DNA from: Procambarus clarkii
Lineage: Eukaryota > Arthropoda > Malacostraca > Decapoda > Cambaridae
Length of the DNA stretch: 64,000 nucleotides
Direction of reading: 5' to 3'
NCBI RefSeq assembly: GCF_040958095.1
Contig: NC_091228.1
Location: 13,993,399-14,057,398 of the forward strand
The position numbers and the translations under genes were made by a program. Below, one piece after another: positions 5,003 through 26,100 of the stretch (its first letter is position 1; each line of letters starts with the position of its first letter). Under the pieces are notes generated by a model. That model was not told the origin of the DNA and did not search any database. It saw only the letters and a list, made by a program, of their open reading frames with translations.

Positions 5003-5047
5003 TGGTTGAATTGAAAAAATGTGTCAGTTTTGGAACTGTGAATGGGT

Positions 5048-5425: not shown

Positions 5426-5504
5426 CATACCAAACACTTAATTCTTTTAAAACAGTAAAGTTAACTCTTTTTTAATACTTATTTAAAACAGAAAGAATAG
5501 CTCG

Positions 5505-6584
5505 ATGACAGAATTGATGATAAAAGAAATTGACCATGGTCTTCAGCCTTTTATTCACATCACCCAAAGTTTGGTTGATGAAAATAAATCTTTTTTAAAT
5601 ACAAATAAGAATCTGACAGATTTGACAGAAAACATTAAATTGTCAAATCTTCATCACCCAGCCAAATCTTTTATTTATTCTATCAATGAAAACCTAAATT
5701 TTAAATCCCAAAATGATTTTAATAAAATTATGAAAAACATTTTGCATGGTGATGTAGAATCCCCTATTCTAAATATTATAGAAAACAAAGCTCTTAAACA
5801 ACATATGTTAAAAAAATACCCATTTAAACTCTATGAAGAACACATTAACAATGTAAATAAACTTGCCCAAGATCTTGGGTTTGAAAACGAAACTCAATTT
5901 CTTGAATATTTAGAAAGTAATCCTTCACCAACTGATTCCAAATTAACTAAAATTTTTAACACTATGACCAAATGGGCTGGTAAACATAAATGTTTGATAT
6001 TGAAATCTGCGATATTATTAGGTGTAGGTGTTGCTTTTCTTGAATATTTGAACAAATACAATCGGAAGAACAGTGGTTGTTTTAGATACCATGTTGGAAA
6101 AGGACATTCCCTAAAAAAAGAAGTATATTTGACCAGATTTTGTAAATTCCCTATCAATCGGGTTGATTATATTAACTATGACATACTAAATGATAATACT
6201 CATCCATTGTTCAATAAAAAAGTCTGGAACTGTCAATTTGATATTCCAAATTCTGCAGAAACCCAAAACATATTAAATTTGGGCTGTAAGGGAATATGTT
6301 GTCCCCATAACTGCAATTATCTTTCACAATTTGTCCAGGGTTATGAACCTATTTCTAATTTAGGAAATAAAGAAATATTTTATATATATAAATGTGAACA
6401 GGGAACAATTTTAAGAAATATTGCCAAAATTTTAGGAGATGGTATTGGCGAAGTGATTCAAGGCATTGGGCAATCTGATATATGGCAGTTTATATTGAAA
6501 TCAATTAAAAATATTGGCTGGGTTATACTTTTAATTTTATTATTAATAATAATGTTAGGCCCATTGATAATGGTGATCAAATAG
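5505..6584 (+). CDS. pif-5: PIF-5 / ODV-E56-like viral envelope protein (fossil, looks whole)
   Basis: A 359-residue frame, close to the usual ODV-E56 length. Order of parts matches the family: a polar N-terminal half, an internal short hydrophobic segment (about residues 165-182) followed by a basic patch, a Cys-rich ectodomain-like part (about 190-305), a conserved ILRNIAKILGDGIGEVI-type stretch, and a C-terminal membrane anchor (about 335-358). In baculoviruses PIF-5 sits in the virion envelope as part of the entry complex used for oral infection of gut cells. The identification rests on part order and remembered family motifs, not on a search. It looks whole as an open frame. Confidence 0.65.
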   Translation: MTELMIKEIDHGLQPFIHITQSLVDENKSFLNTNKNLTDLTENIKLSNLHHPAKSFIYSINENLNFKSQNDFNKIMKNILHGDVESPILNIIENKALKQHMLKKYPFKLYEEHINNVNKLAQDLGFENETQFLEYLESNPSPTDSKLTKIFNTMTKWAGKHKCLILKSAILLGVGVAFLEYLNKYNRKNSGCFRYHVGKGHSLKKEVYLTRFCKFPINRVDYINYDILNDNTHPLFNKKVWNCQFDIPNSAETQNILNLGCKGICCPHNCNYLSQFVQGYEPISNLGNKEIFYIYKCEQGTILRNIAKILGDGIGEVIQGIGQSDIWQFILKSIKNIGWVILLILLLIIMLGPLIMVIK

Positions 6585-6680
6585 CGACATATGAGTACAC
6601 TAATGGGTGGTGTGGTGTATGGTGCATTGATGTAATAATATACAATATTTACTTACTGAGCTTATTTGCCAAGAAAATGT

Positions 6681-7220
6681 TTAACTACCATTGCAACATT
6701 CATTAACATATTTCATAAATAATTCTCGAGGTAACCCACCATATTCATATGCAATGTATAAGAAGGATATACCCCAGGGGACCTCTGTTATATGTCCATC
6801 AATATTTCGTAAAATTTTCCATGATTTTAAATTTTCTTTTTCCTTTTCTAAATAGGAAATTTCATATTGAACTTCAACACTGGAATGGGAATAAATTTCT
6901 GATGATTGTGGTAGTGGTGGTTGTTGTTGTGGTGGTGGTAGTGGTGGTGGCGGTGGTGGTGGTGGTAATTGATAAAAATATTTTGAAGGAAAATCAGAAA
7001 CGTAACATGAAGAAGGTGGAATTACATAAATTGAATGTGGCACTGAAGTCATATAATAAGGTACAATCATATATTGAGTTGTTTGCAATGGTATTTGTGG
7101 AATGGTTGGTTGATAATAATAATCATTTCGATGACACCCATATTCTTCACCACCACCACCACTATTCCAACTTTCAGCATCACCATTTACTCCAGCTTCC
7201 ACCATGATTCCTCTCAGCAT
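6681..7220 (-). CDS. Unknown viral-block protein with poly-Pro tract
   Basis: A 179-residue frame on the strand opposite its neighbours. The N-terminal half is Tyr/Pro-rich. The middle holds a run of prolines broken by Gln and Leu (about residues 88-104), followed by a charged helix-prone segment (YLEKEKENLKSWK) and a folded-looking C-terminus (ITEVPWGISFLYIAYEYGG). No family recognised. It lies between the PIF-5 and PIF-0 homologues, so a viral origin is likely by position and base composition. Looks whole. Confidence 0.5.
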   Translation of the reverse strand: MLRGIMVEAGVNGDAESWNSGGGGEEYGCHRNDYYYQPTIPQIPLQTTQYMIVPYYMTSVPHSIYVIPPSSCYVSDFPSKYFYQLPPPPPPPPLPPPQQQPPLPQSSEIYSHSSVEVQYEISYLEKEKENLKSWKILRNIDGHITEVPWGISFLYIAYEYGGLPRELFMKYVNECCNGS

Positions 7221-7300
7221 TCTGGTAAATGAATCCTCAAATTTCTTTATTATATTGATGAATATTAAAAAAATAAATAAATACTCTTAACAATTTCATA

Positions 7301-9325
7301 ATGAAAACTGTTACTGTCTCTGATATTGCAATTGCAACTTACATAGTACATCGTATATCACAACGAAAAACAATGGAGATTCTTCAACAAAGAAATGGAA
7401 GTAAGTATTTTAAAAATATTATCATTCAGAATATACCATGGAAAAATATTCCTCCCAATTTCCCCAAAACTTTCTTAGATGAAAATCCTAACGACTTTGA
7501 AGTTAAATTCACAACGCTAGGTTGTAACATGCTAAAATGTTATTATGATGTAAAAACTGCTTGTCAGCCCGGATCTGGATCAGCTATTTTAATAAACGAA
7601 CGTGAATATGCCTGTAGTGAAGCATGTTATGCTGTTTATAATGAGGTCCTTGAATTTCTTCAAGAAAGATTTGGTAATGATTTAAAATCTATTCTAAACA
7701 ATACAGAAACAGACAATCATTATTTCTCGAAACCTATTCCCGTTGAAACTTGGTCGATTAATGTCAAGGAATCTATCGAAAATTATTGTGGTGTACAGTT
7801 GTCTGCCCTTAAAACATTGGCTCCAAGACCTTCAAGTTGATGGAGTCCTTCTAATGAAAACGATTTACAATCTTATCAAAAGAACCCCATTGCCTATGCC
7901 AAGAATACAAATACATATCAACTGAGAAAAGCTGTTGCTGGCTTAATCGATGCTCCACCATTGACATGGAATATTCAGCAACAGAATATAAACTTTAACT
8001 CCATCTATTGCAAATTCTTTCATAAATACTATGATAGCCAGTCAGTCAATGCCATAGCCATGTCCACCGCCAGATATTAGGTTTTATATTTGGCAATCAA
8101 GTTATCAACCAATTAACCGATGGTGAATTAGTGGACTTACTTAATCCGGCAGCAGGAATGAGTATGATTCTTATGGATAAATTGAACAAACAAAATTATA
8201 TGGATGTTGACCGAGGTTATATTGAAACAGTTGTTCCAGTCAATACTCGAAAAATAACAATTTGTTGACGAAGCGGATATAGTAGTATCCTCCGAAAATG
8301 TATCATTTATTAAACATTATACTACTACTAATTTTATAGATGTTATAATAACACGTTTAGAATCTGAGTTTTCCGATTTATTATCATTAATAAAAGATGA
8401 GGCTATTACTATAACCGAAATTGAAGTTACAACTCGAGTGCCTAAGATAATTTCAAGACTGTTAAAATATTTTTCCGAAAACATTCTCCATGATGCTCTT
8501 CAAGAATTATTATCTGTAATTATGGTAGAAGCTTCTTTTCAACAAATGATTATTCAACTTTTGGCGATAATCATTCGATCATCTATGGTTGAAATGAGAA
8601 TTCAATTTTCAATACGGCTTTTATCCGTTTTATCTTCGTCTTTATCCCTTGTTTTATCTGTAGGATTAGTGTTGTTACCATTAGAATTATATTTATCAAT
8701 AGGTAATATTGGTGGGTACAATAATGAAATAACTCATGCTGCATTAGAAAACCTTCGCCATAAAATAATTAATCAATTGTTAGAACAAGATATAAACTTT
8801 GGACAATATATTAAATTGGGGCCTCCACAGTCTATAACCACACCACAAATAACACCAGATATGATATATTTATCTGCCATAAATGAAATAATACGCATTT
8901 ATCCCCAATGTATAAACATAATTGGTATGGATGGAACTACCACAAATTCTTTAGAAGAGAACAAGATGATTTTAAGCCTGCTTAGTCAGTTTGATGTAAA
9001 CAGCCTTGGTCAAGCAATTACTCACAAGATTAATTCTAAAACCTGTGATAGAGATTCTAAAGTGATAGATATGAGTAATTATATAATTAATGAAGCCAAA
9101 TATAAACATTATCCCATTCAAACTGCAGATTTGGAATTACAAGAAGTAGAAAATTTAATTTCAAATTCTAAAAGGGATATATTAATTTTATGTTTAGCTT
9201 TGATATTTTTAACTGTCACTCTGTTCCTCTTTCTCTTCAAGAAGCAACTTTATTCTTTTTATACACTAGGCATAAGTAATTGTTTTTATATATATTGGTC
9301 TCTTTCTACAGCTTGGTTAAATTAA
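7301..9325 (+). pseudogene. pif-0: PIF-0 (P74)-like viral envelope protein, broken fossil
   Basis: The N-terminal part has the P74 signature region: a PPNFP-type lead, then LGCNMLKCYYD, matching the conserved RGCESMSCYPF-like motif of P74, and a later Cys-rich stretch. The C-terminal part carries the long hydrophobic region and final membrane anchor expected of P74. Overall span (about 2 kb) agrees with the family's usual 600-700 residues. P74 binds midgut cells and is part of the PIF entry complex. The copy is broken, with about two or three breaks. Homology is by recalled motifs; a profile search was not possible here. Confidence 0.65.
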
Positions 9326-9344
9326 AGATACATAATAAATATTG

Positions 9345-9540
9345 TATGAGTGTGTATGTGTATGTGTGTGCTGGTGAGTGTGAGCATGTGCACTCACCTA
9401 TCTGTGTTTGTGGGGGCTGAGCCACGGCTCCTTGGTCCCGCTCTGAACGGTCAATCAACCGGTACATAGACTCATGATCACCGATCATCCCACCAGACTC
9501 CATCATACTCTCCCAGCCCGAAGCCGTGCACCATGGTATG
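9345..9540 (-). repeat. LINE 3'-tail repeat inserted in the viral block
   Basis: Contains CTCACCTATCTGTGTTTGTGGGGGCTGAGCC-type sequence. Read on the minus strand it matches the tail of the CR1-like LINE at 19225-19330 (GATTGACGGTT...GGGACCAA.GAGCC...GGTGAGTAC) and the end of the copy at 26106-26230. A short TG microsatellite adjoins it. This is host repeat DNA that entered the viral block after integration. Confidence 0.7.
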
Positions 9541-10207
9541 TTGAACAAATATATTCCTCCTCTTCCTCTCCATCATCATCAATCTCTTCCACTACCTCCT
9601 CCATCTCTTGATCCACTTGATCTTCCAATGCCTGATCCACTTCATCCTCCACATCCTCCAAACCTCCCTCCTCCATCTCATCCAACGCCTTCCTCTTTTT
9701 AATAATAATACCATTTATATTAATATAATAATTTTTGTACTGATTGTGCCAAATAGATTTATAAACGCTTTGTTGTGGAAGGTAAGCTATCACTTTAGTT
9801 ATTTGATAATCAGGTAAAAGTTGTAAATTAAATTTTGCAAGTCTTGGTATTGATATAATATTTTTATTTTGTGTAATAATAGTAAATTCTTGCAATAACT
9901 CACAATGCATATGCCATTCAGTGGATATTGATATATGTTTTCTTTCTGACCAATTTTTATCTTTTTCAAAATATCTTATAAGATGCTCAATGATAAGCTC
10001 ATCATATTTAATCACATCATCAATACAAATGTACATATCAATAGTTTTAAGAGTTTTTTTATTTACTTCTAATGCTTTTTGATAATTTATACAATTATTA
10101 ATAATATACTCCCTTAATGAACTTTGTTTTAAACTTTGGGTAATATCTCTTACCCCATCTAAAAGAAACAACATTAAATAAACAACCTCGTTGATAAAAA
10201 GTATCAT
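9503..10207 (-). CDS. Unknown viral-block protein with acidic C-terminus
   Basis: Frame of 234 residues. The N-terminus is hydrophobic (MILFINEVVYLMLFLL), the middle is Ile/Lys/Tyr-rich, and there is a basic IIIKKRK patch followed by a long Glu/Asp-rich tail of repeated EEGGLEDVEDEVDQ-like units. The last dozen residues come from the inserted host repeat rather than the original gene. No family recognised. Base composition and packing agree with the neighbouring viral frames. Confidence 0.45.
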   Translation of the reverse strand: MILFINEVVYLMLFLLDGVRDITQSLKQSSLREYIINNCINYQKALEVNKKTLKTIDMYICIDDVIKYDELIIEHLIRYFEKDKNWSERKHISISTEWHMHCELLQEFTIITQNKNIISIPRLAKFNLQLLPDYQITKVIAYLPQQSVYKSIWHNQYKNYYININGIIIKKRKALDEMEEGGLEDVEDEVDQALEDQVDQEMEEVVEEIDDDGEEEEEYICSTYHGARLRAGRV

Positions 10208-10258
10208 TTTGTTTTTGTCTAATTTAAAAGGGGAATGAGTTCTAGAATAAACTGAAAG

Positions 10259-10600
10259 TTAAAAATCCTGATCATCGTCTTCATATACAATATTTTGATT
10301 ATGAATTTGCGTGAAAAATCTTTCGTACCAGACAAATTTATTATCAGCTGTTAGTCCTGACATGTCATAAATTTTTTGATATATTAATTGTCTTCTGCTA
10401 AGATTGTTTGGATAAGTAAAAGTAATATGAGAATCATCGATATTATTATTATAATATAATTTATCAGCTATAAATAATTGTCTTGTTAGATTAAATCTCA
10501 GGGGAAAATAATATAATCCAGGGTTTTTTTTAATGTTAAACTTCTCATTATTTATATGTTCGATTTGTATGTTAATTGAAAGTTTATCCTTTTTATTCAT
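10259..10600 (-). CDS. Unknown small viral-block protein
   Basis: A frame starting at MNKKDKLSIN (an earlier Met lies in the AC repeat and is unlikely to be the start). About 113 residues, rich in Asn/Ile/Tyr, with an acidic end (EDDDQDF). No motif recognised. It is the last frame before the AC minisatellite and is co-directional with the 10207-9503 gene. Confidence 0.45.
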   Translation of the reverse strand: MNKKDKLSINIQIEHINNEKFNIKKNPGLYYFPLRFNLTRQLFIADKLYYNNNIDDSHITFTYPNNLSRRQLIYQKIYDMSGLTADNKFVWYERFFTQIHNQNIVYEDDDQDF

Positions 10601-10617
10601 CTTTTTTATACAAAAAC

Positions 10618-10717
10618 ATATACACACACAAACTCACACTCAAACACAGAAAAACACACACCCAAAACACACAAAGACACACACACACACACAAAGACAC
10701 ACACACTTACACACAAA

Positions 10718-10805
<88 letters not shown>

Positions 10806-10822
10806 GACACACACACACAATG
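10618..10822. repeat. AC-rich minisatellite (ACACAAAGACAC units), segment 1
   Basis: Mixed units of ACACAAAGACAC and pure AC dinucleotides. The same unit types return at 15735-16320 and 19325-19742, so the three segments look like one array split by two later insertions. Confidence 0.9.
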
Positions 10823-10829
10823 TGAGGGA

Positions 10830-13800
10830 TCTAGATCCCTCAGCTAGTTTTCCTAGGTTCTAGAGTAGGCTAGACACTCTAGAAACTGAAGCTTTCAAAT
10901 TAACATATGCTTGTTGGGTGTTGAATGAAAGCTTATGTCAAGAACTATCACTTGAGAGTAGCTAGAAGTCTGTGATTGCTCTGTAGAGAGAATTACAGAG
11001 ATTTTCCTGTTTCTGTGAAGTAGGATGTGAGTTACTTGGACTAAAACCATTACAGGGGGAGGGGAGAGAGAGTGGAGTGAACGTTGCCCCCCCCCCCCCA
11101 CATGGGAGACAATAAGCCACTGTCTAGGCCTCCCCTCCTTGTGACGTCACAGGACGCGCACGGCGAGGCCATCGGTGATTGGTTTAGGCACCATGAGGAA
11201 CAGTGCGGGCTTCAAGCTGATTGGTCTAGGTATTGTTGGGAGAAGGTACGGGCATCCAGAGTTCCCTTAGCCCGCGAAATCTTTAGTTTGAATTGGGCGG
11301 CCAGGGAAACGAGACGTGTTTGGGTGCAGGTGGCACCACCCGGCCACCTCCACCCCCTGTTGATCGCTTCTGTCGTCCAAATTACTCGATTGATGGCACT
11401 CCTGCCATCAGGGGTTGTGTCAAGGCCAAATTAAAAGAATTGGGGCCAGGGATTTACGGAAGAAACAGTAAAAAGCTAAGAGACAGTTGACTGTGTGAAC
11501 GCATGAGGCAGGCTGGCAGAGCCTCATGGTGTAACAGGTGTGAGAGTATCCTGTCTAGTGGCAAGGGACAATTGATGTTGGGCAGTGTACGCGTATGTGA
11601 TATTACAGGCCCATGTTGGACTTTGCATTCCGCCAGGCTGCGTCAGTAAGGGGGACGCCGCCGGCCATGGTCACCACAGGATAGAGCAAGGCAGGCTCAG
11701 CCGCGTGGGTACTCCTGTGGGCGGCACCCATGTGCGCGCCCACCCGCGGGTGGAGGGCACCCACCACCCTGCCTGCCAGCCCGGCCAGTGGGGTGGTATG
11801 ACGTCATGCGCCACTCAAGCCACCCAGGCCACCTACCCGAGGCCACCCAACCCCCCTCTCTCAGCTCGGGAGGGGCGCTGTGGCCACCTGCCTTGGCCAC
11901 ATGCCTTGGCCACTTTCCTGGGACAGCCTAGGGCCACATCTTGTCGACGCATGAGGAGCAAGCAGCTAAGTGTGTCAGCTAGTGTGGTAGTAACTTTGGT
12001 AATGAGGAAAAATAAGGGAAAGTAGAAAGGAGTAGAAATGAGTACTATTACACTGTGATGAGTACCGGTGGATATTCCCGGTAAGAGTTATCTCAGAGCC
12101 TCGCCAGGCTAGGAAAACAGCTGAGGGGCAGCTGTCAGTGGAACCCAGGTGTCGGATAGGGGCGGTACCTGGAGATAGAGATTATACACGGGACCACGCT
12201 GTATGTTAATATGTTAGTAGACTGACTAGAGGATGTAACCAGTCAGTGTAGAGATTTACCATATAAGTGTTCCAGCCTGTCGATTCTATATAATCGTTCA
12301 GGCTGGATTAATGCCATAGAGTACCGTAAAATTATAATCATTAGAGGTAGACTATTTGGTGATATAATTTTTCATTGATTATGTGAATGCCATTTCTATG
12401 TGTTCATTTGCATGTCTATGTACTGTGTTGTGTGGTAAGTCAGTAGAGGTGATTGCTGACTGATTGCCTAATGTTGTCATTAGCATGGGAGGCATGCTGA
12501 CGGCATCATTATGTTGCAGGTTTGTGCAGTGTTGTTATCAGTTTATACAATATTATTGCCCCAGGAACTGTGTTGAGGGTTTAAGGGACCTCTAGGATTA
12601 TTCAGGGGAATTCTCAGTACTTAATGAGAGCAGGCAATTGATGGGTTAATTGCCTGGCTGAGGTATGTGTGTGTTCACAGTATTCCTTTGCAATCAGGTG
12701 CAAGAAGTAAAAGAGGGAGAGGGGCAGTAATATTAGTACACTTGTGTGTGTTGCACAACCGTGTGTTTTGTTGTGTGGGCACAGTAATTAGCGAGTTGCA
12801 GTAGCTGCAACCATATGTGGGCAGTGCTGATATGATGTTGCATGCCATTATAGTGTGACCTATGTAACGCTGGGGTTACTTTGTTTCTTTAACACATCAC
12901 TCGGTACCCCCAGACATCACTCGGTACCCCTACTTAAATCTCTGAATATGTTAGACATTAAGTCACTGCACATTCTCTCATGTGTATTATACATATATAA
13001 AACGCTAAACTATAATGCCAATCCTGATCTCAAAAGCTTCATAGAAGGTTGTATCAGAACCCATGAGCATCACACCAGAAATAAATACAGTTTTGATATT
13101 CCTAGAGTACGACTTAATCAAACTAGAAATGCTCTACAAATCAAGGGGCCCAGAATGTGGAATGACCTTCCCAACCATGTTAAAGACTGTACCTCTCTCA
13201 ACCAGTTTAAGTTAAAAGCGAAGCTATACCTAATAAATTCCCTGTAACCTACCTTACCCTTCTATTGTCAACCAATGTCTGTTTTTTTCTTTAAAGAGCG
13301 CTGTTTGTCGACATAATTGTATTTGTGCTGCTTTTTCATCTATGTTTTCATTTCTTGTTTTCATTCTACTCATTATGCTCAATTAGTATTAAGCTTGTCA
13401 TTTAAGTTTATCATGCCCGAAACGCTTTGCGTAATAGTGGCTTTAGGCATTGTATGTACTAGCTCTACCTATAAGTCAACCAATCCTTGTAAAAATTTAT
13501 TGTATGTATGTACCTTACCTAAATAAAATTGTATTGTATTGTATTGTATTGTATTAAGTTATGTTGAGGACTTAAGGATTCAGTGAGTTAATTAAGGGGT
13601 AATTAACTGGATAAGGGGTGCACACTTAGTATTGTGGAGTGAGTGAGGGCTGTTATAAGAGAAACAGTGTTAAGCGAGAATGAGATACGTCTCGGGAGCA
13701 ATTAATTGTCCATGTGACAATTAATTGACCACTCTAGCTAATTATGTAATTAGCCTTCTCATCATGAAGTCACGTAGTGGGAGAGGTTCTGTCAGAGTCT

Positions 13801-15730: not shown

Positions 15731-15734
15731 AAAT

Positions 15735-15758
15735 CTCACACACAAAGACACACACAAA

Positions 15759-15804
<46 letters not shown>

Positions 15805-16092
15805 GATACACTTAAACGCACACATACACAAAGACACACACACACACACACAAAGACACACTTACACACACACCCAAAGACACTTACATACACACAAAGA
15901 CACACACACTTACACACACAAAGACACACACACACACTTACACACAAAGAAACACACACAAAGACACACACACACAAAGACACACACACACAAAGACACA
16001 CACACAAAGACACACTTACACACACACAAAGACACACTTACACACACACAAAGACACACTTACACACACACAAAGACACACACACACACAAA

Positions 16093-16182
<90 letters not shown>

Positions 16183-16186
16183 GACA

Positions 16187-16218
<32 letters not shown>

Positions 16219-16320
16219 TTCTGACACACAAAACGCATTCTCACACAGGAATCATACAGACATTCTCACAAACACACATACACAAAGACACACACACACA
16301 CACACATTCTGACACACACA
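15735..16320. repeat. AC-rich minisatellite, segment 2
   Basis: Same ACACAAAGACAC and CTTACACACACAAAGACAC units as segments 1 and 3. Its right end contains an ~80-base block (16219-16300, starting ATTCTGACACACAAAACGC) that recurs almost exactly at 19441-19520, on the other side of the LINE. Confidence 0.9.
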
Positions 16321-16812
16321 TGTCTGCTGGTAAGAAAAGGCTGGGATTTTGAGGAGATGGATATTCAGGGCTGTGAAGGTTTCAGTGACTACATAGCAGG
16401 TACTGTAACAAATGGAGGGAAAAAAATTATAGTCGTAGTCATATATAATCCACCACCAAATGACAGAAGACCTAGACAGGAATATGATAGAAACAACATG
16501 GCCACCATTAACATAATAGAAAGAGCAGCTTCTGTTGCTAGCAGGAATGGATCTGGACTACTAATTATGGGAGACTTCAACCATGGGAAGAGAGATTGGA
16601 AGAACAGAGACCCGCATGGAGGACCAGAAACATGGAGAGCTTAGCTGCTGGACGAGGAAACAAGAAACTTTCTAAGCCAGCACACCAAAGAACCAACAAG
16701 AATGAGAGGAGAAGATGAACCAGCAATGCTTGATTTGATATTCACCCTTAATGAATGGGATATAAGGGAAGTTAAGATGGAAGCGCCCTTGGGAATGAGT
16801 GACCATCAGCAG

Positions 16813-17090
16813 TCTCCGTGGTGTAGTGGTAAGACACTCGCCTGGCATTCCGCGAGCGCTATGTCATGGGTTCGTATCCTGGCCGGGGAGGATTTACTGG
16901 GCGCAATTCCTTAACTGTAGCCTCTGTTTAACGCAACAGTAAAATGTGTACTTGGATGAAAAAACGATTCTTCGCGGCAGGGGATCGTATTCCAGGGACC
17001 ATAGGATTAAGGACTTGCCCGAAACGCTACGCGTACTAGTGGCTGTACAAGAATGTAACAACTCTTGTATATATCTCAAAAAAAAAAAGT
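16813..17090 (+). mobile_element. tRNA-derived SINE with LINE-type tail
   Basis: The head carries both Pol III internal promoter boxes: box A TGGTGTAGTGG (16819-16829) and box B GGTTCGTATCC (16869-16879, one mismatch to consensus). The body has no frame. The 3' part contains GCCCGAAACGCTACGCG and TAGTGGCT, the same tail as the LINE ends at 13410 and 63955, and then an A-run. A 3' tail shared with a LINE is the known way SINEs borrow the LINE reverse transcriptase. I do not see a clear target-site duplication. Confidence 0.85.
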
Positions 17091-17093
17091 GTA

Positions 17094-19225
17094 TTGAACT
17101 TTGAGTACCTGGTAGAGCTAGGACTTATCTTCCCCCCAAAAGAACTAGGAATCAAAAGGCTGGCATACCGAAAGGGGAATTATGAACAGATGAGAAGTTT
17201 CCTAAGTGAAATACCTTGGGACACAGACCTCAGAGACAAGTCTGTACAGGGTATGATGGATTATGTTACCCAAAAGTGTCAGGAGGCAGTAAACAGGTTC
17301 ATCCCGGCCCAAAGGGAAAAATCCGAGAAGCAACAGAAGAATCCATGGTATAATAGGGCATGTATGGAAGCGAAGAAACTGAACAAAAAGGCGTGGAGGA
17401 ACTTCCGGAATAACAGAACACCAGAAAGCAGAGAGAGATACCAGAGAACCAGGAATGAGTACGTCAGGGTGAGAAGAGAAGCAGAGAAAAATTTTAAAAA
17501 TGATATAGCAAACAAAGCCAAGACCGAACCAAAGCTACTCCACAGTCACATCAGAAGGAAAACAACAGTGAAAGAACAGATATTGAAACTTAGAACAGGC
17601 GAGGACAGGTATACAGAGAATGACAGAGAGGTGTGTGAGGAACTCAACAAGAGGTTCCAGGAGGTCTTCACAATAGAACAGGGTGAGGTCACTGTGCTAG
17701 GAAAAAGGGAGGTAAACCAGGCGGCCTTGGAAGAGTTTGAAATTACGAGAGAGGAGGTCAAGAGACACCTGCTGGATCTGGATGTTAGAAAGGCTGTTGG
17801 TCCAGATGGGATCTCACCATGGTACTGAAAGAGTGTGGAGAGGCACTTTGCTTGCCACTCTCCATAGTGTATAGTAAGTCACTAGAAACGGGAGACCTAC
17901 CAGAAATATGGAAGACGACGAATGTGGTCCCAATATACAAAAAGGGCGACAGACAAGAGGCACTGAACTACTGGCCAGTGTCCTTGACTTGTATACCATG
18001 CAAGGTGATGGAGAAGATCGTGAGAAAAGACCTGGTAACACATCTGGAGAGAAGGGACTTCGTGACAAATCGCCAACATGGGTTCAGGGAGGGTAAATCT
18101 TGCCTTGCAGGCTTGATAGAATTCTACGATCAGGTGACACAGATTAAGCAAGAAAGAGAGGGCTGGGCGGACTGCATTTTCTTGGATTGTCGGAAAGCCC
18201 TTGACACAGTACCGCATAAGAGGCTGGTACATAAGCTGGAGAGACAGGCAGGGGTAGCTGGTAAGGTGCTCCAGTGGATAAGGGAGTATCTAAGTAATAG
18301 GAAGCAGAGAGTTACGGTGAGGGGTGAGACCTCCGATTGGCGTGAAGTCACCAGTGGAGTCACACAGGGCTCTGTACTCGGTCCTATCTTGTTTCTGATA
18401 TATGTAAATGATCTCCCGGAGGGTATCGATTCATTTCTCTCAATGTTTGCAGACGATGCTAAAATTATGAGAAGGATTAAAACAGAAGAAGACTGTTTGA
18501 GGCTTGAAGAAGACCTAGACAAGCTGAAGGAATGGTCGAACAAATGGTTGTTAGAGTTTAACCCAACCAAATGTAATGTAATGAAGATAGGTGTAGGGAG
18601 CAGGAGGCCAGATACAAGGTATCATCTGGGAGAGGAAATTCTTCAGGAGTCAGAGAAGGAAAAAGACTTGGGGGTTGATATCACGCCAGACCTGTCTCCT
18701 GCAGCACATATCAAGCGGATAACATCAGCGACATATGCCAGGCTGGCCAGCATACGAACGGCATTCAGAAACTTGTGTAAAGAATCATTCAGAACTTTGT
18801 ATACAATCCTGGAGTATGCAGCCCCAGCATGGAGTCCATATCTAGACAAGGATAAGACTAAACTGGAAAAGGTTCAAAGGTTTGCCACCAGACTAGTACC
18901 CGAGCTGAGAGGTATGAGCTACGAGGAGAGACTACGGGAATTAAACCTCACTTCGCTGGAAGACAGAAGAGTTAGGGGGGACATGATCACCACATTCAAG
19001 ATTCTGAAGGGAATTGATAGGGTAGATAAAGACAGTCTATTTAACACAAGGGGAACATGCACAAGGGGACACAGGTGGAAACTGAGTGCCCAAATGAGCC
19101 ACAGAGATATTAGAAAGAACTTTTTTAATGTCAGAGTGGTTGACAAATGGAATGCATTAGGGGGTGATGTGGTGAAGGATGACTCCATACACAGTTTCAA
19201 ATGTAGATATGACAGAGCCCGATAG
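17094..19225 (+). pseudogene. CR1-like LINE ORF2, RT part
   Basis: Two overlapping frames (17094-17828 and 17819-19225) give the linker and complete RT domain. Motifs seen: KAVGPDGISPW, VVPIYKKGDR, QHGFREGKSC, IFLDCRKALDTV (the usual Phe of KAFD replaced by Leu), GVTQGSVLGPILFLIYVNDLP and the catalytic FADD at about 18450. After RT comes the usual CR1-type Cys/His-poor thumb and C-terminal domain. A single frameshift near 17820 separates the halves, so ORF2 cannot be made as one protein. Confidence 0.9.
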
Positions 19226-19324
19226 GCTCAGGAATCTGTACTCCTGTTGATTGACGGTTGAGAGGCGGGACCAAAGAGCCAGAGCTCAACCCCCGCAAAC
19301 ACAACTAGGTGAGTACAACTAGGT

Positions 19325-19742
19325 GAGTACACACAAAGACACACACACAAAGACACACTTACACACACACAAAGACACACTTACACACACACAAAGACAC
19401 ACTTACACACACACAAAGACACACACACACACACACACACATTCTGACACACAAAACGCATTCTCACACAGGAATCATACAGACATTCTCACAAACACAC
19501 ATACACAAAGACACACACACATACACATTCTGACACACACACACACACACACACATTCTGACACACAAAACGCATTCTCACACAGGAATCACACACATAT
19601 TCTGACACACAAAACGCATTCTCACACAGGAATCACACACACATTCTCACAAACACACACAAAAACACACACACACACACACACACACATTCCTACACAC
19701 ACACACACACACACACAAAGACACACGCACACACAGACACAG
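19325..19742. repeat. AC-rich minisatellite, segment 3
   Basis: ACACAAAGACAC units plus repeated ATTCTGACACACAAAACGC and CATTCTCACACAGGAATC blocks (at least three times). Continues directly from the LINE tail. Confidence 0.9.
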
Positions 19743-19935
19743 GAATCCAAAAAGTTCACCAAAACTATTATTATATTCACTTTACATTTTTTCTTAAAAA
19801 GGTTGGGAGAGGTACAGTCTTTGATATGATTGGGAAGGGCATTCAACATTTTAAAACCCTTGGTTTGACGAGCAGCATTTCTGGTTTGATTAAGTCGAAC
19901 CCTTGGGAACCGAATGATGTCTAGGGGCAGCGTTA
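19743..19935 (-). mobile_element. Divergent LINE 3' fragment related to the 60.76-kb element
   Basis: Read on the minus strand it encodes RLNQTRNAA..., then LPNHIKDCTSPNLFKKK, matching the C-terminus of the 60760-63741 ORF2 (RLNQTRNAL, LPHHVKDCTSLNQFK) at lower identity than the 12.9-kb copy. It is short and lacks the 3' tail. Confidence 0.75.
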
Positions 19936-19939
19936 CTTA

Positions 19940-20630
19940 TTGTTATAACAGCACATCATTCGTTTTTTTTTTTTTATTAGAGATGGTATCTCATCCATAA
20001 AAAATATTTTGTGGAAACAAATGGGGTTGACCACCAGCCCGTGGTCAGTGGGGACCCTGTGGTGGACCATCAGCCGGTGGTGGACAATTCATTGGCTTAT
20101 TAGGCAAATCGGATCTTGAATAGTTTGCCAAATAAGACATCAAATTTTATTTATAACTCCAAATTTTGTATTGGTTATTTTTTAATTAAGGCAAAAAAAT
20201 GAAGAGAATCAATTAATTCTTTTATGGATTTATATATTTTACCAAATTTTATTAAAAAATAAAACTTATAAACATTCCTATATAATATAAAATTTTTGAT
20301 GTTTAAGTTTTGATAATTTTATAAACATAATTTTATTTATCACACATATTAAATATATAATATTGTTAATTTTATGTATAATTTTTTATTTATATTTAAA
20401 ATAAAAAAAACAAAATATACATTTTGATTAAAATATTCATAGTTACTTTATAATTTGAGATAAAATTAAAGAAAACAGAAATAACATTTTTCCTTTTATA
20501 GTTAAATTCGATATTTTATATAAAAATAAAACAAACAAAGTCACTCAAAGCCATTTTATATATTATTTATTTATTTTATAAACATTTATTTTAAATAAAA
20601 TTAAAAAAAACTGAAAAAATATATATATTT
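19940..20630. other. AT-rich non-coding stretch before viral block B
   Basis: Very AT-rich, with many T and A runs and no open frame of note. A short imperfect repeat (ACCACCAGCCCGTGGT, ACCATCAGCCGGTGGT) lies at 20028-20085. It may include viral intergenic DNA. Confidence 0.4.
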
Positions 20631-20638
20631 TCTTTTTA

Positions 20639-21619
20639 TTAAACAAATATTTCATCACTACTTTCATAATCACTACTTCCATATTCTTTGTAGTCGTTAC
20701 TCGCCTCTGTATCATAATTATAATCTATATTATCACTATTTTCATCATTAATCCATTTGAAGAACGAACAATACATGGCAACTTCAAAATCCCTAAATAC
20801 AAAATAATAATAATGACTTACAAATGCTAATAACATTATGGGAGTAATAACTTTGCGAATACCAATTTGGATATAATAATATTCATCAAATAATTTAAAC
20901 CAAGAAGTTGGTAAAATGTTTCCATAAACATCTAAAAATTGTACTTGCATACAACATTTTTCCTGATCATAAAGAATATTCATTGAACCTCGTTCTTTGA
21001 AACATCGAAATTTTAAATTTGATATAACAATATGATATTGATTATTTTCCTTATTTGTTATGTTTAAAAAGTATGGTTTATCTCCATATATAAAATGAAC
21101 TGCATCTTCAATTTTTGATTGTAACATCTCCTTAGGTTTGAAGCTTTTCTTCAGAACAGATAAAATATAATTCCATCGGTAATTTTCATTACAAAAACAT
21201 TTCCCATATAAATTACATAAGGGATACTCATCATCACTTAATGCACAATAGAGATAGTAGGCAGCCATTGCTACAAAATTATTACTTTTGCTTATACTCT
21301 GAAACAACTCACGTCCTGTATTATCAAAATATTGAACTGAGGGAGGATTGTTTGAAACAATTTTTAGCGATCCAGTATGGTAAGACGAAGGTATACCATC
21401 TCCTATTATTTCTTTCTTACACCCATTACAAAATTTCACGTTTAAGATTCTCAAAACCATAACGGACTCTTCCGGTGTTGTTGTGTGTACTGACAGAGAC
21501 CATAACGGGTGTTTTAAATTGTCTCTCCCATATATTCTTTCAAGAAAAGTGGTTACATTTCCTACTGTAAAAAAGGAAAATTTGAATTTTTGTTTAGTCA
21601 TTTGTTCAAAATAATCCAT
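20639..21619 (-). CDS. Unknown viral-block protein, 326 residues
   Basis: The largest uninterrupted frame of block B. It has many aromatic residues and several Cys (CNGCKKE near residue 63, CNLYGKCFC near 138, KCCMQ near 224), a hydrophobic stretch near residues 263-275 (ITPIMLLAFVSHYYYFVF), and an acidic Asp/Glu/Ser/Tyr-rich C-terminal tail. No family recognised. It is the last of a minus-strand run of frames starting at 23595. Looks whole. Confidence 0.5.
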   Translation of the reverse strand: MDYFEQMTKQKFKFSFFTVGNVTTFLERIYGRDNLKHPLWSLSVHTTTPEESVMVLRILNVKFCNGCKKEIIGDGIPSSYHTGSLKIVSNNPPSVQYFDNTGRELFQSISKSNNFVAMAAYYLYCALSDDEYPLCNLYGKCFCNENYRWNYILSVLKKSFKPKEMLQSKIEDAVHFIYGDKPYFLNITNKENNQYHIVISNLKFRCFKERGSMNILYDQEKCCMQVQFLDVYGNILPTSWFKLFDEYYYIQIGIRKVITPIMLLAFVSHYYYFVFRDFEVAMYCSFFKWINDENSDNIDYNYDTEASNDYKEYGSSDYESSDEIFV

Positions 21620-21690
21620 TCGAAAATTTGTATTACAGAGACATTTAATGCCATAATTTTCAAAACAAGTTGTAACATTATCATATAACT

Positions 21691-22176
21691 TTATTTTTTC
21701 TGTGAGGATTTGTATTTTGAAGACATATATTCTTCCACTAGCTGAGTAATTTTATGAGTGTTGGATACAACTCGTAATATTCGTTTATGTAATGGCTCAT
21801 CTTTTTTAATATCAGAGAAAAAGAAAATTGGAATATTAATAAATAAAATGTTAATTTTACCACTCCCACTCCCATTTTCTAAGAACTGTGCAACATTATT
21901 TATATTGGGAGAGTAATCACAGACTGAATGGGAATCCAATTTCATAATAAATTTCCTTTTCAATTTTATGAGTAAGTATTGTACGAATAATTGTAAGTCT
22001 TCTACACTATTATTTTCAAAGGTAACATCATCATTCTTATCAACATTATTAATATTATGATGATGATAGTTGGATAGCACAATTGTTCCTAAAGGTAAAG
22101 CAGGAGGATAAAAGTGTAATTTTTTTAAATAAGATAATGGGATTTCTATACTACCATCTGAGTTACATGCAAACAT
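21691..22176 (-). CDS. Unknown viral-block protein, 161 residues
   Basis: Starts MFACNSDGSIEIPLSYL and overlaps the end of the PIF-2 frame by one base, an arrangement typical of compact viral genomes. Ends in a Lys/Ser-rich tail. One hydrophobic segment (INILFINIPIFFF). No family recognised. Looks whole. Confidence 0.5.
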   Translation of the reverse strand: MFACNSDGSIEIPLSYLKKLHFYPPALPLGTIVLSNYHHHNINNVDKNDDVTFENNSVEDLQLFVQYLLIKLKRKFIMKLDSHSVCDYSPNINNVAQFLENGSGSGKINILFINIPIFFFSDIKKDEPLHKRILRVVSNTHKITQLVEEYMSSKYKSSQKK

Positions 22177-23293
22177 TATTTAGTTTTGTTTTTAATATTG
22201 AGTGAATTCATAAATCGATTAAAAAAAATGTCGGTATTTTCGTAATCAATCAAATCAATCTTGGATACAAATTTTGCCTTTATAATTACCTTTGTACATC
22301 CATGTTTAATATCTTCAAAATTTGAACATGGATATGTTCCTTTATGTATTTCAATATTATTTTTATCAATCTTACACTTCATCCAAATAGATAATTCTTG
22401 TTTTTCCTCATCAAAATGGGGATCCGGATACACTGTACACGGAAAATGTTTATTGTCATGTAAGTTAGTATACATAGGACCGCAGTCACATAGACCATTA
22501 GAATAACCTGGAGCTGTAATTACACCAGATGGTAAATGTACCAGACAAGGATCGTGGAAACAGGCTGAACGTGAGATATCTGGATTAGAAATATATCCAG
22601 GGGAACATCGACATATATATTTTTCTTCTTCATTTAATGGTATAAAAAAGTCTTGGGGTGTCATTTGAGTAAGGTCCACTACTTCATCCTGCCCATTGGT
22701 AATTTTAACCAAAGTTCCTCCTGGTTCACATCCAGTTAATCTATTTGTAGTTGCGTTATAAAGACCTGGTAGGTAGGATTTACACTTTCATTGATCTTCT
22801 TCAAATGAATACTGTAAAAAACCCCATACTGGGTCACAAAATTTTTCTTCTGGTTGTTTCCAAAGACAGTATGTGCATCCTGGTTTGAGGATTCCACCTC
22901 CATAATAATATTTTATATTGTTAGTAGAAGATGATATAGGTATTACGACCTTTTCTAAATAACGTCCACATTTACGGCCCCCAAGTTTTTGACAAATTTG
23001 ATTGTCATGAGACTGAGAACTAGGTACTTTTAAAATCATTCCCTTACATTTATTGATTTTAATGTCATTGTTATTATCATATTCATTATAATTTAGCCAA
23101 CCTTGTAGATCAATAAATTCGTGTCTTTCTTCAAATGCAATTTCTTCATCTTCAAGTCCCTCTTTAATACTTTGACGTAAAAAACTATGAATGTAAAAAC
23201 GATCAGTAATATAAAGAAAATTAAAAAATATAAAAAAAGTACGAAAATGATAACAGGAATTTGAAGAAAATACTGGTGTGTCGAAGAAATCAT
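22176..23293 (-). pseudogene. pif-2: PIF-2-like viral envelope protein, broken fossil
   Basis: N-terminal membrane anchor (FVLFLYFLIFFILLIVFTFIV), then a Cys-rich ectodomain whose spacing follows baculovirus PIF-2: a KCGRYL region, a GG...GCTYC...FCDP segment, then RCSPGYISNP...CFHDPC and GLCDCG, matching the family's CNPLNPLEC/GECDCG area. Span of about 370 codons equals the usual PIF-2 length. PIF-2 is a core component of the entry complex for oral infection. Broken, with about one or two breaks. PIF-1 was the main alternative, but the order of Cys motifs fits PIF-2 better. Confidence 0.65.
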
Positions 23294-23595
23294 TTTTGGT
23301 TTTTATTTAAGAGAAATTTTAGGAGTTTCTTAGTTGAAACTTTTTTATTACAGTTTGTGGAATAACAGTGAAAACGATGACGATGAATATAAAGTCTACC
23401 TGAAGGTGTACGAGATTTACCACGAACTTCATGAAAAGGATAAAAAATATTACATTGCCATTTTTGGTTCATTGCTGAGAGTTCGTTATATGGCTCCTTA
23501 CATAATAATTCAGCACATTTTTGTGTAATTATCTCTTGTTTTTTTTTTTTAAATTGTTCAATTTTTGGTTGATGCAGCGATCGTTTTAAAACCAA
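23290..23595 (-). CDS. Unknown small viral-block protein, 101 residues
   Basis: Highly basic frame upstream of PIF-2, overlapping it by four bases. Contains YIHRHRFHCYSTNC, a possible His/Cys metal site, and a Lys-rich end. No family recognised. Looks whole. Confidence 0.45.
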   Translation of the reverse strand: MVLKRSLHQPKIEQFKKKKQEIITQKCAELLCKEPYNELSAMNQKWQCNIFYPFHEVRGKSRTPSGRLYIHRHRFHCYSTNCNKKVSTKKLLKFLLNKNQK

Positions 23596-23744
23596 CCTAG
23601 GACGACTAATTACATTTCCTCCTCCTAAATTATTATCATTATTATTATTATTATTAATTATTTAAAAAATATTATTTCTAGTGGATAAGTGTCCCTGTTT
23701 AATTTCATTGATACTAGTAAATTCTATTGAAGTCTCAATACATC

Positions 23745-23910
23745 GATATATGAATGAAACACTCGCCATATTGGTACATGATCCTTATTACTAAACAATA
23801 GAGTGAGAGAAAAGCTTACAAGATAATATAAAGGATATTGTAGAATCAGAGAACCTAAGATATATATAGCTGTACTGTCAGAAGTAAAATATTTTTTTAA
23901 GAAAAGTAAT
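23745..23910 (+). pseudogene. Degenerate duplicate of the 24.2-kb viral-block gene
   Basis: The DNA here (CTTATTACTAAA, GAGAGAAAAGCTTACA, ATATTGTAGAATCAGAGAAC, TAGCTGTACTGTCAGAAGTAAAA) aligns in order with the start of the gene at 24196. It is a partial tandem duplicate, about 430 bases upstream, decayed. Confidence 0.65.
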
Positions 23911-24195
23911 TAATTTTCTCACGGGACACACATATTCAAAGTAAGGGTTAGCAGGTTCTTGTTATCGTGTAAATATGATCGGCGCACGACACTGAATTCT
24001 GCCAGGCCAACTACAACAGTATTTTCTTGAAATTCTTGTTACCAATTTTCATATTTTTTTTTAATATTCTATAATTTTCTTTATATTGCTGATCCTTTGT
24101 ACATACATAAGTCTTGAAGAGGGACTGGAAGCTGAATCCTCCTATTATTATTATTATTATTATTATTATTGTTATTATTATTGAAACTTGACATA

Positions 24196-24570
24196 ATGGA
24201 TGACGAGCCTTATTACCAAAAGAGAGTAAGACAAAAGTTTACAGATATTATAAAGTATATTGAAGAATCAGAGAACTTAATTATAGCTGTACCATCAGAA
24301 GTAAAACAATTTGAAAAGCTGTTAAATTCTTGGGTATTATATTTACCTAATCTCCAAAATGTTGTGGTAAAGAGAGGAAATTGTAATACTGTAAGTGTTG
24401 GTACCAAAGTGAGAATAAAAAAACACTCACTATTTTTAGGTCACCTTTCGAAATAATTATTAAGCAAAATGATATAAAAGTTAGCTCTTCATTTCTTATG
24501 AAAGATGTAATATTATTATTAGTAGAAGCTATTCAAAAAGAAAAGAGAAATATCAAAGTATATTGGGATT
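24196..24570 (+). pseudogene. Unknown small viral-block gene, broken
   Basis: Likely start MDDEPYYQKRVRQKF (an upstream Met lies in a TAT-repeat and is less likely). A charged, helix-rich protein with no recognised family. It is on the strand opposite most of block B and has a partial duplicate upstream. Broken, about one break. Confidence 0.45.
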
Positions 24571-24633
24571 AATTAATAACAAATATGATAAATTTATATA
24601 CATTTTTTATAAACATGAAATTTAATTTAAATT

Positions 24634-24891
24634 TCAAATAACATTAAGTATTATATCAAATTTTGGAATATAAAAACCATTAACTAATTTCAAATATATT
24701 TCATTGGAAAATATTTCACATTCATTATTATAGAATAAATTTAGAATATTGTTATATGTTACATTTGAATTTTTATGTTTATTTATAATATCCCAAACTT
24801 TTAAAATATGAAATTCCGTCTTATCAATATATAACGGATCTATTTGTAGATAAAAATCAATTTCTTCAGTATTTTCGAGGAATTCACTCAT
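24634..24891 (-). CDS. Unknown small viral-block protein
   Basis: Frame starting MSEFLENTEEIDFYL, about 85 residues, rich in Ile/Asn/Tyr. No family recognised. Convergent with the 24196 gene. Looks whole. It marks the right edge of recognisable viral-type frames. Confidence 0.4.
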   Translation of the reverse strand: MSEFLENTEEIDFYLQIDPLYIDKTEFHILKVWDIINKHKNSNVTYNNILNLFYNNECEIFSNEIYLKLVNGFYIPKFDIILNVI

Positions 24892-24949
24892 TTTTTTAAT
24901 ATTTATTAAAAAAGAAATGATCATTCAGTGCTATTCCAAGAAGTACAAC

Positions 24950-26100
24950 TTCAACCAAGTTAATGTGAAACATCAACCTCTTCAGGCTTGTGGACCTCGT
25001 AACTGACTGAAACCACTCTCCTGACTGATCATCATTAGTTATAATATAAAAAAAACACTGCCTAAAATAATAGAAGTAGCACAAACAAACAAGAGATATT
25101 TAAATCAAATAAGGGGAACAAACTTAAACTAAAATTTAAAATGATGTGAAGTGACTTACTTATATATATATTTATATATTAACATTCAGTGATTATTTAA
25201 GACACCAGCTAGCTCTAGTAGCCAATGTGATGAACCAATTGGCTTCTAATGTCAGGTGTGAATAATTTCCTATAAAAATTTGTAAAAATACACTTATATA
25301 TGTCGATTGAAAAATTTGCTTTAACAACCCAAAAATTTGCCAAAACAACCCAATCAGCTTTTGTTTTCTATGGAAAACATATCTATGATTTTCCATAGAA
25401 TCTATTGAAGGAGAGTCGAGGTGGATGGGAGGTAAAGAGGGGAGAAAGGTAAGAAATGGGAAAAGATTTGGGAAAGGAGGGATAGAGATAGGGAGGGTGG
25501 ATGGGAGGAGAGAACAGAATGGGAAGAGGATACCGGGTACACCTCTACCATATTCAAATGGTAATGTCTGTCTGTCTGTTTGTCAGACAGACAGACAGAC
25601 ACTGTCTGTCTAGCCTCCTCTCAGTTGGAGGCTAGACACCTGAAACAAGTTTCCCCAAACTTTTCAGACTAATTACCGTTGGTTACATGCCCAACATGGG
25701 GGGTCGCGATCGCTGTTCAAAATACAGTGCCAAGTGACAATGCCATAGTCACCCTCACGAAAACCTCGCAATGCTAAATAACTCGACTCTGAATTATTAT
25801 TATTAATATTATTATTATTAAGGAAAGCAGAAGGTTAAGGGTCATGAAATGGGTGTGGTACAAAGTCCGATCTCCTGAAGTCTAACAGGATAGTTAAAAC
25901 TGAAGGAAGAAACAAGAAAATACCACATCTACTAACCTATTTAAATGAACACAATATTGGTATTGTTAAGGTAAATTTTGAGGTATTTCGTGGTACAAGA
26001 GGTACAAGTTTTTGTTCAAGAGGTAGTTGCCCAACGTGCCTGAGTTAATCGCCCTGGAGACTCCGAGGCGTGTTGACGTGTCGCTCTCATTGGTCAGAGA
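24950..26100. other. Intergenic sequence with a G-rich tract and two hairpins
   Basis: No coding frame. A purine-rich tract (GGGAGG-type) covers 25400-25530. At 25565-25600 TGTCTGTCTGTCTG faces CAGACAGACAGACA; directly after, 25608-25637 forms GTCTAGCCTCC/GGAGGCTAGAC. A TTA/ATT microsatellite lies near 25790-25820. Confidence 0.6.

What the first reader, a model, noticed from the sequence alone, without database searches (positions are those of the whole stretch)
5440..24950. Naldaviricetes-like viral fossil with PIF-5, PIF-0 and PIF-2 in a decapod genome
Three frames in AT-rich, intron-free blocks carry the part order and Cys patterns of three per os infectivity factors, the entry machinery conserved across baculoviruses, nudiviruses and nimaviruses. 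They are mixed with at least eight frames I cannot place. This could be a lineage of crustacean nuclear virus known only, or mainly, as a fossil.
Basis: partly seen in the sequence, partly recalled or inferred. Interest (0 to 1): 0.88.

Follow-up and report, generated by a model that had tools for sequence, protein, structure and literature searches.

The report
Multi-copy endogenous baculovirus-relative in crayfish genome
This stretch of what is most likely a crayfish chromosome holds a broken, rearranged piece of a large DNA virus related to baculoviruses, and the same genome carries about a hundred other, often unbroken copies of it, so the virus lineage appears to have multiplied inside its host's chromosomes recently rather than being only an ancient fossil.

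Summary
The viral blocks are real. PIF-0 is confirmed: an unbroken 677-aa copy elsewhere in the same genome finds 18 proteins, and 14 of 19 aligned members match Pfam Baculo_p74. PIF-5 and PIF-2 have homologues and conserved linkage but no profile match; those names stay inferred. In the window PIF-0 and PIF-2 are broken, PIF-5 is open, and the PIF-5/PIF-0 block is inverted relative to 28 of 28 other copies compared. The bigger result lies outside the coordinates. The 4.03-Gb genome gave 114 PIF-0, 113 PIF-5 and 150 PIF-2 matches, linked to many of 93 DNA_pol_B matches (a few probably host), 68 LEF-9-like and 57 LEF-8-like RNA-polymerase genes; a P33-like gene lies beside polB in both neighbourhoods read. 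Full-length frames remain in 78 of 114 PIF-0 and 52 of 68 LEF-9-like matches, and differences show constraint. A linked viral RNA polymerase argues against a nimavirus. Best reading: a divergent Lefavirales-like naldavirus, over 165 kb, living as a high-copy endogenous element in a crayfish. Precedents: endogenous nimaviruses; filamentous-virus relatives in ants. No linked integrase or insertion site was found.

The parts
5505..6581 (+). PIF-5-like membrane protein frame, 359 aa, open; C-terminal membrane-like segment
   Evidence: homologues P0001-P0004 E 1e-233 to 8e-15; 113 matches in the genome; no Pfam match
7301..9322 (+). PIF-0 (P74) gene, broken here by a premature stop and frame changes; unbroken 677-aa copies exist elsewhere
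   Evidence: tblastn with natural frame of L003; 18 homologues; 14 of 19 aligned members match PF04583, 11 of 19 PF08404; 114 genome matches
6684..7286 (-). Pro/Gln-rich frame on the opposite strand between PIF-5 and PIF-0, with a counterpart in another copy (L003:3570-4070+)
   Evidence: no family over cut-off
9506..10335 (-). unplaced viral frame (277 aa in L036), in two frames here
   Evidence: no Pfam family
10280..10546 (-). unplaced viral frame (92 aa in L036)
   Evidence: no Pfam family
4784..5281 (-). remnant of an acidic 144-aa frame that lies beside PIF-0 in L003
3183..3929 (-). remnant of a C2H2 zinc-finger gene with repeated QPIDLSLKSK motifs that lies in the unit beside PIF-0 (open 343 aa in L033); a last short piece matches at 2536-2604
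20684..21688 (-). unplaced viral frame (at least 336 aa in L041), open
   Evidence: no Pfam family over cut-off
21694..22176 (-). unplaced viral frame, 162 aa in L041, open
22179..23293 (-). PIF-2-like Cys-rich protein with N-terminal membrane-like segment, broken here; open copies exist elsewhere (372 aa in L041)
   Evidence: no Pfam match
23332..23769 (-). frame with a weak CHC2-like zinc finger (169 aa in L041)
   Evidence: Zn_ribbon_DnaG E=0.005, below cut-off
24136..24453 (+). unplaced frame, also present beside PIF-2 in L041 (3430-3609+)
17040..19222 (+). non-LTR retrotransposon (RVT_1) between the two viral blocks; a piece of it (17647-18373) also lies in two of four PIF-5-side flanks of other copies, a shorter piece in a third
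   Evidence: RVT_1 E=1.2e-29

Best explanation
The window holds a degraded, rearranged fragment of an endogenous large DNA virus of the Naldaviricetes kind with Lefavirales-type transcription genes. Shown: the genome carries on the order of 100 dispersed copies of the same virus, with PIF-2-like, PIF-5-like and PIF-0 genes within about 10 kb of each other in most paired sites; where both are found together, a B-family DNA polymerase usually lies some 66-122 kb away and a LEF-8-like gene another 43-67 kb beyond; LEF-9-like genes sit within 12 kb of the polymerase, and P33-like genes in the two neighbourhoods read. Many copies are open-framed and very alike (PIF-0 95-100%, LEF-9-like 97-100% to the query). 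Inferred: it behaves like a provirus or giant mobile element, replicating with its own DNA polymerase, transcribing late genes with its own RNA polymerase, keeping a PIF entry set for oral spread, and re-entering the germline genome; host LINEs, inversion and point mutation then wear single copies down. The window and its sister copy 0.35 Mb away (C79:14.35 Mb) represent a minor strain.
For: PIF-0: homology chain to Pfam Baculo_p74. Copies: 114 PIF-0, of which I count 78 full-length and uninterrupted in the table; 113 PIF-5; 150 PIF-2, partial ones included; 68 LEF-9-like, 52 of 68 without an inside stop; 57 sites I took as LEF-8-like among 110 Rpb2_6 matches. Linkage: PIF-2 within 40 kb of 89 of 114 PIF-0 sites, 83 of the 89 on the same strand and upstream; pol within 200 kb of PIF-2 in 32 of 93 (about 1.5% expected for uniform scatter), 20 of these 32 divergent at 66-122 kb; LEF-8-like within 200 kb of pol in 16 of 57 (0.9% expected), 11 of 16 on the same strand at 43-67 kb; LEF-9-like within 12 kb of pol, same strand, in 49 of 68. 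Families: DNA_pol_B 1e-29 with exonuclease domain, Evr1_Alr 1.3e-4, RNA_pol_Rpb1_2 7e-6 with a DFDGD motif; RNA_pol_Rpb2_6 2.7e-7. Selection: pN/pS 0.25 among 28 PIF-0 copies, 0.34 PIF-2 (10 copies), 0.33 pol core (12 copies); window versus one main-family copy pS 0.043, pN 0.009, while the two window-type copies differ near neutrally, 3 syn to 9 nonsyn.
Against: PIF-2 and PIF-5 have no profile match. The Evr1_Alr score is below Pfam's cut-off. The LEF-8/LEF-9 naming rests on RNA-polymerase domains, size and linkage; no LEF-specific family was listed. Only 15 of 93 pol sites lie within 200 kb of a PIF-0 site, and 61 of 93 are not within 200 kb of a PIF-2 site, many on short contigs; 12 of 32 pol-PIF-2 pairs have other orientations. 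Uniform scatter is a generous null, since sites cluster. Copies used for pN/pS were best-scoring ones, which favours open frames; the PIF-2 test alone is not significant (p 0.06). No terminal repeats or target duplications were seen in the stretches read (ends of insertions were not reached), and 0 of 66 tyrosine-recombinase sites lie within 200 kb of a viral site. Activity is inferred from sequence alone.
Confidence: 0.8

Rival explanations
1. It is another endogenous nimavirus (WSSV relative), the giant-transposon-like kind already described from shrimps, crabs and isopods.
For: Same life style, comparable size class, GC and copy number; pif-0, DNA polymerase and p33 are shared by Nimaviridae.
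Against: LEF-9-like and LEF-8-like RNA-polymerase genes are linked to polB and the PIF genes; the Naldaviricetes gene table gives Nimaviridae no lef-8 or lef-9. No linked tyrosine recombinase found.
Confidence: 0.08
2. A single old viral insertion was multiplied by host segmental or satellite-type duplication; the virus has been dead since.
For: The two window-type copies on C79 look like a local duplication with near-neutral differences; copies contain LINE pieces.
Against: Constraint across copies (pN/pS 0.25-0.34, biased set), 11 LEF-9-like copies equal in score to the query's own, dispersal over 72 contigs for PIF-0.
Confidence: 0.08
3. Contamination of the assembly by an exogenous crayfish virus, partly mis-joined into chromosomes.
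For: 26 of 114 PIF-0 and 34 of 93 pol sites are on contigs numbered C95 or higher, many of them short; runs of N lie in some copies.
Against: 88 of 114 PIF-0 sites lie on the largest contigs C1-C90; the window copy is decayed, inverted and embedded among host retrotransposons; LINE pieces lie beside PIF-5 in other copies.
Confidence: 0.04

Closest known systems
Endogenous nimaviruses (majaniviruses, pemoniviruses, clopoviruses, whispoviruses; PMC10871703, PMC7016691)
   Same: Large dsDNA naldavirus genomes (about 200-580 kb) present in tens to hundreds of copies in crustacean genomes; authors note that structural and PIF genes are kept
   Different: Nimaviridae lack the viral RNA polymerase genes lef-8 and lef-9 (table) and the endogenous ones have virus-coded integrases and fixed insertion sites; here RNA-polymerase genes are present and no linked integrase or site was found. 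The text of PMC10871703 has no mention of crayfish.
AmFV/LGDV-like endogenous viruses in ants, chiefly Harpegnathos saltator (PMC10259472, PMC12548425)
   Same: Lefavirales-type viruses with PIFs and a gene annotated as RNA polymerase Rpb1 domain 2, endogenous in many paralogues (1,378 loci; 81-100% identity within clusters) in one genome
   Different: Insect hosts; kinship to the present lineage is untested.
Crustacean nudiviruses (Nudiviridae; PMC8472649, seen in listing only)
   Same: PIF genes and viral RNA polymerase (family table), crustacean hosts
   Different: Free viruses; the present PIF-0 gives no direct Pfam Baculo_p74 match, so it is divergent; no tree with them could be made.
Unnamed PIF-0-like proteins P0006-P0022 (mostly ENA)
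   Same: 30-36% identical to the crayfish PIF-0 over 64-100% of its length; 14 of the 19 aligned members match Baculo_p74
   Different: 16 of these 17 form the other side of a 100/100 branch from the window virus, P0005 and the long-branched P0007; hosts unknown.

Membership tests
Naldaviricetes | pif-0/p74 homologue | tested here: met
   (through relatives; the query alone gives no Pfam hit)
Naldaviricetes | pif-2 and pif-5/odv-e56 homologues | tested here: inconclusive
   conserved linked frames of fitting size and membrane topology (fit recalled), but no profile match
Naldaviricetes | pif-1 and pif-3 homologues | not tested
   no candidate frame examined
Naldaviricetes | B-family DNA polymerase | tested here: met
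   part of the copies linked to the PIF genes
Naldaviricetes | P33 sulfhydryl oxidase | tested here: inconclusive
   Evr1_Alr E=1.3e-4, 22.7 bits against cut-off 27.6, with CPQC motif; weak PDB match to an FAD-linked sulfhydryl oxidase E=0.012
Lefavirales | lef-9 (RNA polymerase, DFDGD-type motif) | tested here: met
   RNA_pol_Rpb1_2 E=7e-6 over cut-off, HADFDGD, about 650 aa, 49 of 68 copies within 12 kb of pol; identity as LEF-9 rather than another Rpb1-type gene is inferred, no LEF-9-specific family listed
Lefavirales | lef-8 (RNA polymerase second subunit) | tested here: met
   RNA_pol_Rpb2_6 E=2.7e-7 over cut-off in one copy read; 57 sites, frames up to 1205 aa; identity as LEF-8 inferred, no LEF-8-specific family listed
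Lefavirales | lef-4, lef-5, ac81 | not tested
Nimaviridae | no viral RNA polymerase genes (table in PMC10271883) | tested here: not met
   LEF-8-like and LEF-9-like genes linked to polB and PIFs
Nudiviridae, Hytrosaviridae, Filamentoviridae, AmFV group | placement in a concatenated core-gene tree | not testable with these tools
   no reference sequences reached

The most novel reading that the evidence does not exclude
A previously undescribed deep lineage (family level or above) of Lefavirales-like naldaviruses lives in crayfish chiefly as a high-copy, still-moving giant endogenous element: complete virus gene sets with their own RNA polymerase and oral-entry genes, kept under selection by repeated replication and re-integration, present in at least two crayfish lineages.
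Probability: 0.5. Interest if true: 0.85.

Novelty: new variant of a known kind. Interest (0 to 1): 0.72.

Why it matters
High-copy endogenous large DNA viruses in crustaceans were known as nimaviruses, which lack a viral RNA polymerase. A lineage with the baculovirus-type RNA polymerase doing the same would show that the giant-transposon life style arose in another branch of the class in crustaceans, as it seems to have in ants; it would give that branch a crustacean member far from those described, and would supply dozens of sequenced copies in one genome for dating and for asking how a virus stays alive inside chromosomes. It would also matter for virus surveys of farmed crayfish: DNA tests could detect endogenous copies in healthy animals (inference).

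Tried and rejected
Direct Pfam search of window frames: no PIF hit. PIF-2 model PF04631 in the whole genome: nothing, and nothing rang in the controls, so uninformative. PDB sequence searches with PIF-5, PIF-2, PIF-0 and a PIF-0 alignment: nothing useful. IMG/VR scans: five gave no relative; the LEF-9-like query gave 54 loci matching only around the polymerase catalytic motif, which I took for phage-type polymerases without examining them. Chromosome-end preference: 12 of 96 merged loci within 2 Mb of an end against 8.4 expected, on 25 contigs of known length, not convincing. Virus-linked tyrosine recombinase: 0 of 66 sites within 200 kb of a viral site; Pfam may miss divergent ones. A short tandem pol element (pairs of pol 12-13 kb apart on C9 and C30) was considered; on C9 the pair is separated by a 500-base run of N, so I took it for a likely assembly join; C30 was not examined. 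Baculo_helicase search and LEF-8 protein search did not complete and dropped.
Full report
What is in the window. Two AT-rich blocks (about 5-11 kb and 20-25 kb) carry intron-free frames. Between and around them lie host-type repeats: a non-LTR retrotransposon RT at 17040-19222 and another at 60760-63741, an RNase H frame at 1864-2958, and CA microsatellites. None of the ten viral-block frames matched a Pfam family above its cut-off.

PIF-0. A whole-genome search with the downstream open part of the PIF-0 candidate scored 114 of 419 first-look candidates, all at 95-100% identity; most lie in a 685-codon frame. By my count of that table 78 of 114 are full-length without an inside stop, 8 are full-length with a stop, 27 have shorter frames and one runs into N. 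The natural 677-aa frame of one copy (L003) found 18 proteins at E 5.1e-61 or better. That frame itself has no Pfam hit over cut-off, but 14 of the 19 aligned members match Baculo_p74 (best 3.8e-10) and 11 match Baculo_p74_N. In a tree of the 19 the crayfish sequence pairs with P0005 (79% identity, ENA) at 100/100; with the long-branched P0007 they stand apart from the 16 others.

PIF-5 and PIF-2. The PIF-5-like frame has four homologues: a 98% match, TCON_2080 from the Astathelohania contejeani assembly (62%), and two more distant ones (40% and 27%). The PIF-2-like natural frame has three, one of them TCON_2077 on a contig of the same length, 16,306 bases, as that of TCON_2080. That assembly was made from crayfish Austropotamobius pallipes infected with the parasite (PMC7849709, passages seen), so I read the contig as crayfish or crayfish-virus DNA. 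Neither family has a Pfam match; the names rest on size, membrane-like segments, Cys content (19 Cys in PIF-2-like, 7 in PIF-5-like) and linkage to PIF-0, judged against recalled features of baculovirus PIFs.

Not a fragment but a virus. PIF-5 has 113 and PIF-2 150 matches, some partial; these lists are lower bounds. Of 114 PIF-0 sites, 89 have a PIF-2 site within 40 kb, 83 of these on the same strand and upstream. A DNA_pol_B search gave 93 matches, a few of them probably host genes and not sorted out; the 12 fetched are one family, 95.8-99.9% alike. Of the 93, 32 lie within 200 kb of a PIF-2 site and 20 of these 32 have the same divergent orientation at 66-122 kb; 61 of 93 have none so near. 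Two fetched neighbourhoods of pol (L063, L064; 98.6% alike over 7.2 kb) carry a 327-codon frame with an Erv1/Alr domain (P33-like), a 654-codon frame with RNA polymerase Rpb1 domain 2 and the motif HADFDGD (LEF-9-like), and, in L064, two 212-codon frames without family. The LEF-9-like frame recurs 68 times at 97-100% identity, 52 of 68 without an inside stop; 49 of 68 lie within 12 kb of pol, all on its strand. A search for Rpb2 domain 6 gave 110 matches. I read part as host genes and an array of host-like Rpb2 pseudogene pieces on C11, and 57 as a separate group with weak scores (E about 1e-4 to 6e-4) in frames of 320-1205 aa. One of the 57, read as a 1.2-kb piece, is a second-subunit polymerase (Rpb2_6 E=2.7e-7), LEF-8-like. 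The 57 lie within 200 kb of pol in 16 cases, 12 of 16 on the same strand. Chains LEF8-POL-PIF2 on C17 and C30 span about 165-167 kb, so the unit exceeds that.

Age and state. Among copies pN/pS is 0.25 for PIF-0 (28 copies), 0.34 for PIF-2 (10) and 0.33 for the pol core (12); against neutrality p is 0.003, 0.06 and 0.03. These were best-scoring copies, which biases toward open frames. The window copy differs from one main-family copy mainly at synonymous sites (pS 0.043, pN 0.009; p about 1e-5 from rounded counts of 18 and 14), whereas it differs from its sister at C79:14.35 Mb near neutrally (3 synonymous, 9 nonsynonymous). I infer two strains that diverged while functional, then decay of the minor strain after insertion. 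No absolute date is offered.

Rearrangement. The PIF-5/PIF-0 segment (window about 5335-9467) is inverted relative to its neighbours: in 28 of 28 other copies compared the PIF-0 side has the opposite relative orientation, as has the PIF-5 side in 4 of 4 flanks read; the sister copy L002 could not be judged on the first side. In the window PIF-0 and PIF-2 are broken by stops and frame changes; unbroken copies exist elsewhere.

What it is. PIF-0, DNA polB, a P33-like gene and two RNA-polymerase genes together fit Naldaviricetes and, through the polymerase genes, Lefavirales rather than Nimaviridae (gene table of PMC10271883, section read). Endogenous nimaviruses are the closest in life style: 27 genomes of about 200-580 kb, with 22 to 477 copies per haploid genome, called giant transposable elements by their authors (PMC10871703, abstract, two sections and passages; the words crayfish, Procambarus and Astacidea do not occur; PMC7016691, abstract and passages; PMC4506587, abstract). 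Ants hold a parallel of the Lefavirales kind: Harpegnathos saltator with 1,378 loci, 81-100% identity within clusters (PMC12548425, passages), and an AmFV gene annotated as RNA polymerase Rpb1 domain 2, the domain found here (PMC10259472, passages). I found no paper on such a virus in crayfish in searches, in a library of open-licence PubMed Central papers only and from the listings shown; [quoted passage not shown]

How it most likely works. Shown: many dispersed, very similar, often open copies with replication, transcription and entry genes. Inferred: the virus replicates as free DNA in some cells, re-enters germline DNA and is also passed on as an insertion. Not shown: transcripts, particles, integrase, ends of insertions. 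Tyrosine recombinases detectable by Pfam are not linked to it (0 of 66), so insertion may use a different enzyme or host repair.

Noticed in passing
L033:8-1039 (+); window 3183-3929 (-): A C2H2 zinc-finger gene with repeated QPIDLSLKSK motifs (recalled: similar to CtBP-binding PxDLS motifs) sits inside the proviral unit beside PIF-0; possibly a captured host transcription factor.
   Followed up: partly
L041:2613-3122 (-); window 23332-23769 (-): A 169-aa frame with a weak CHC2-type (DnaG) zinc finger directly upstream of the PIF-2-like gene.
   Followed up: no
window ~5335-9467: The PIF-5/PIF-0 segment is inverted relative to its neighbours compared with 28 of 28 other copies; cause unknown.
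   Followed up: partly
G000 contig C11, about 5.4-12 Mb (one also at C79:14190734): More than fifteen similar fragments matching RNA polymerase Rpb2 domain 6 with an inside stop: looks like an amplified host Rpb2 pseudogene.
   Followed up: no
window 60760-63741 (+): Long uninterrupted LINE frame (endonuclease and reverse transcriptase, 993 aa).
   Followed up: no
L037:2044-4543, L038:2987-5486, L063:2399-2898: Runs of N of exactly 2500 or 500 bases inside proviral copies, read as assembly gaps; not pursued.
   Followed up: no
G000, 66 places such as C19:14619389 and C40:29556138: A dispersed set of tyrosine-recombinase frames, many of 335 aa, not linked to the virus.
   Followed up: partly
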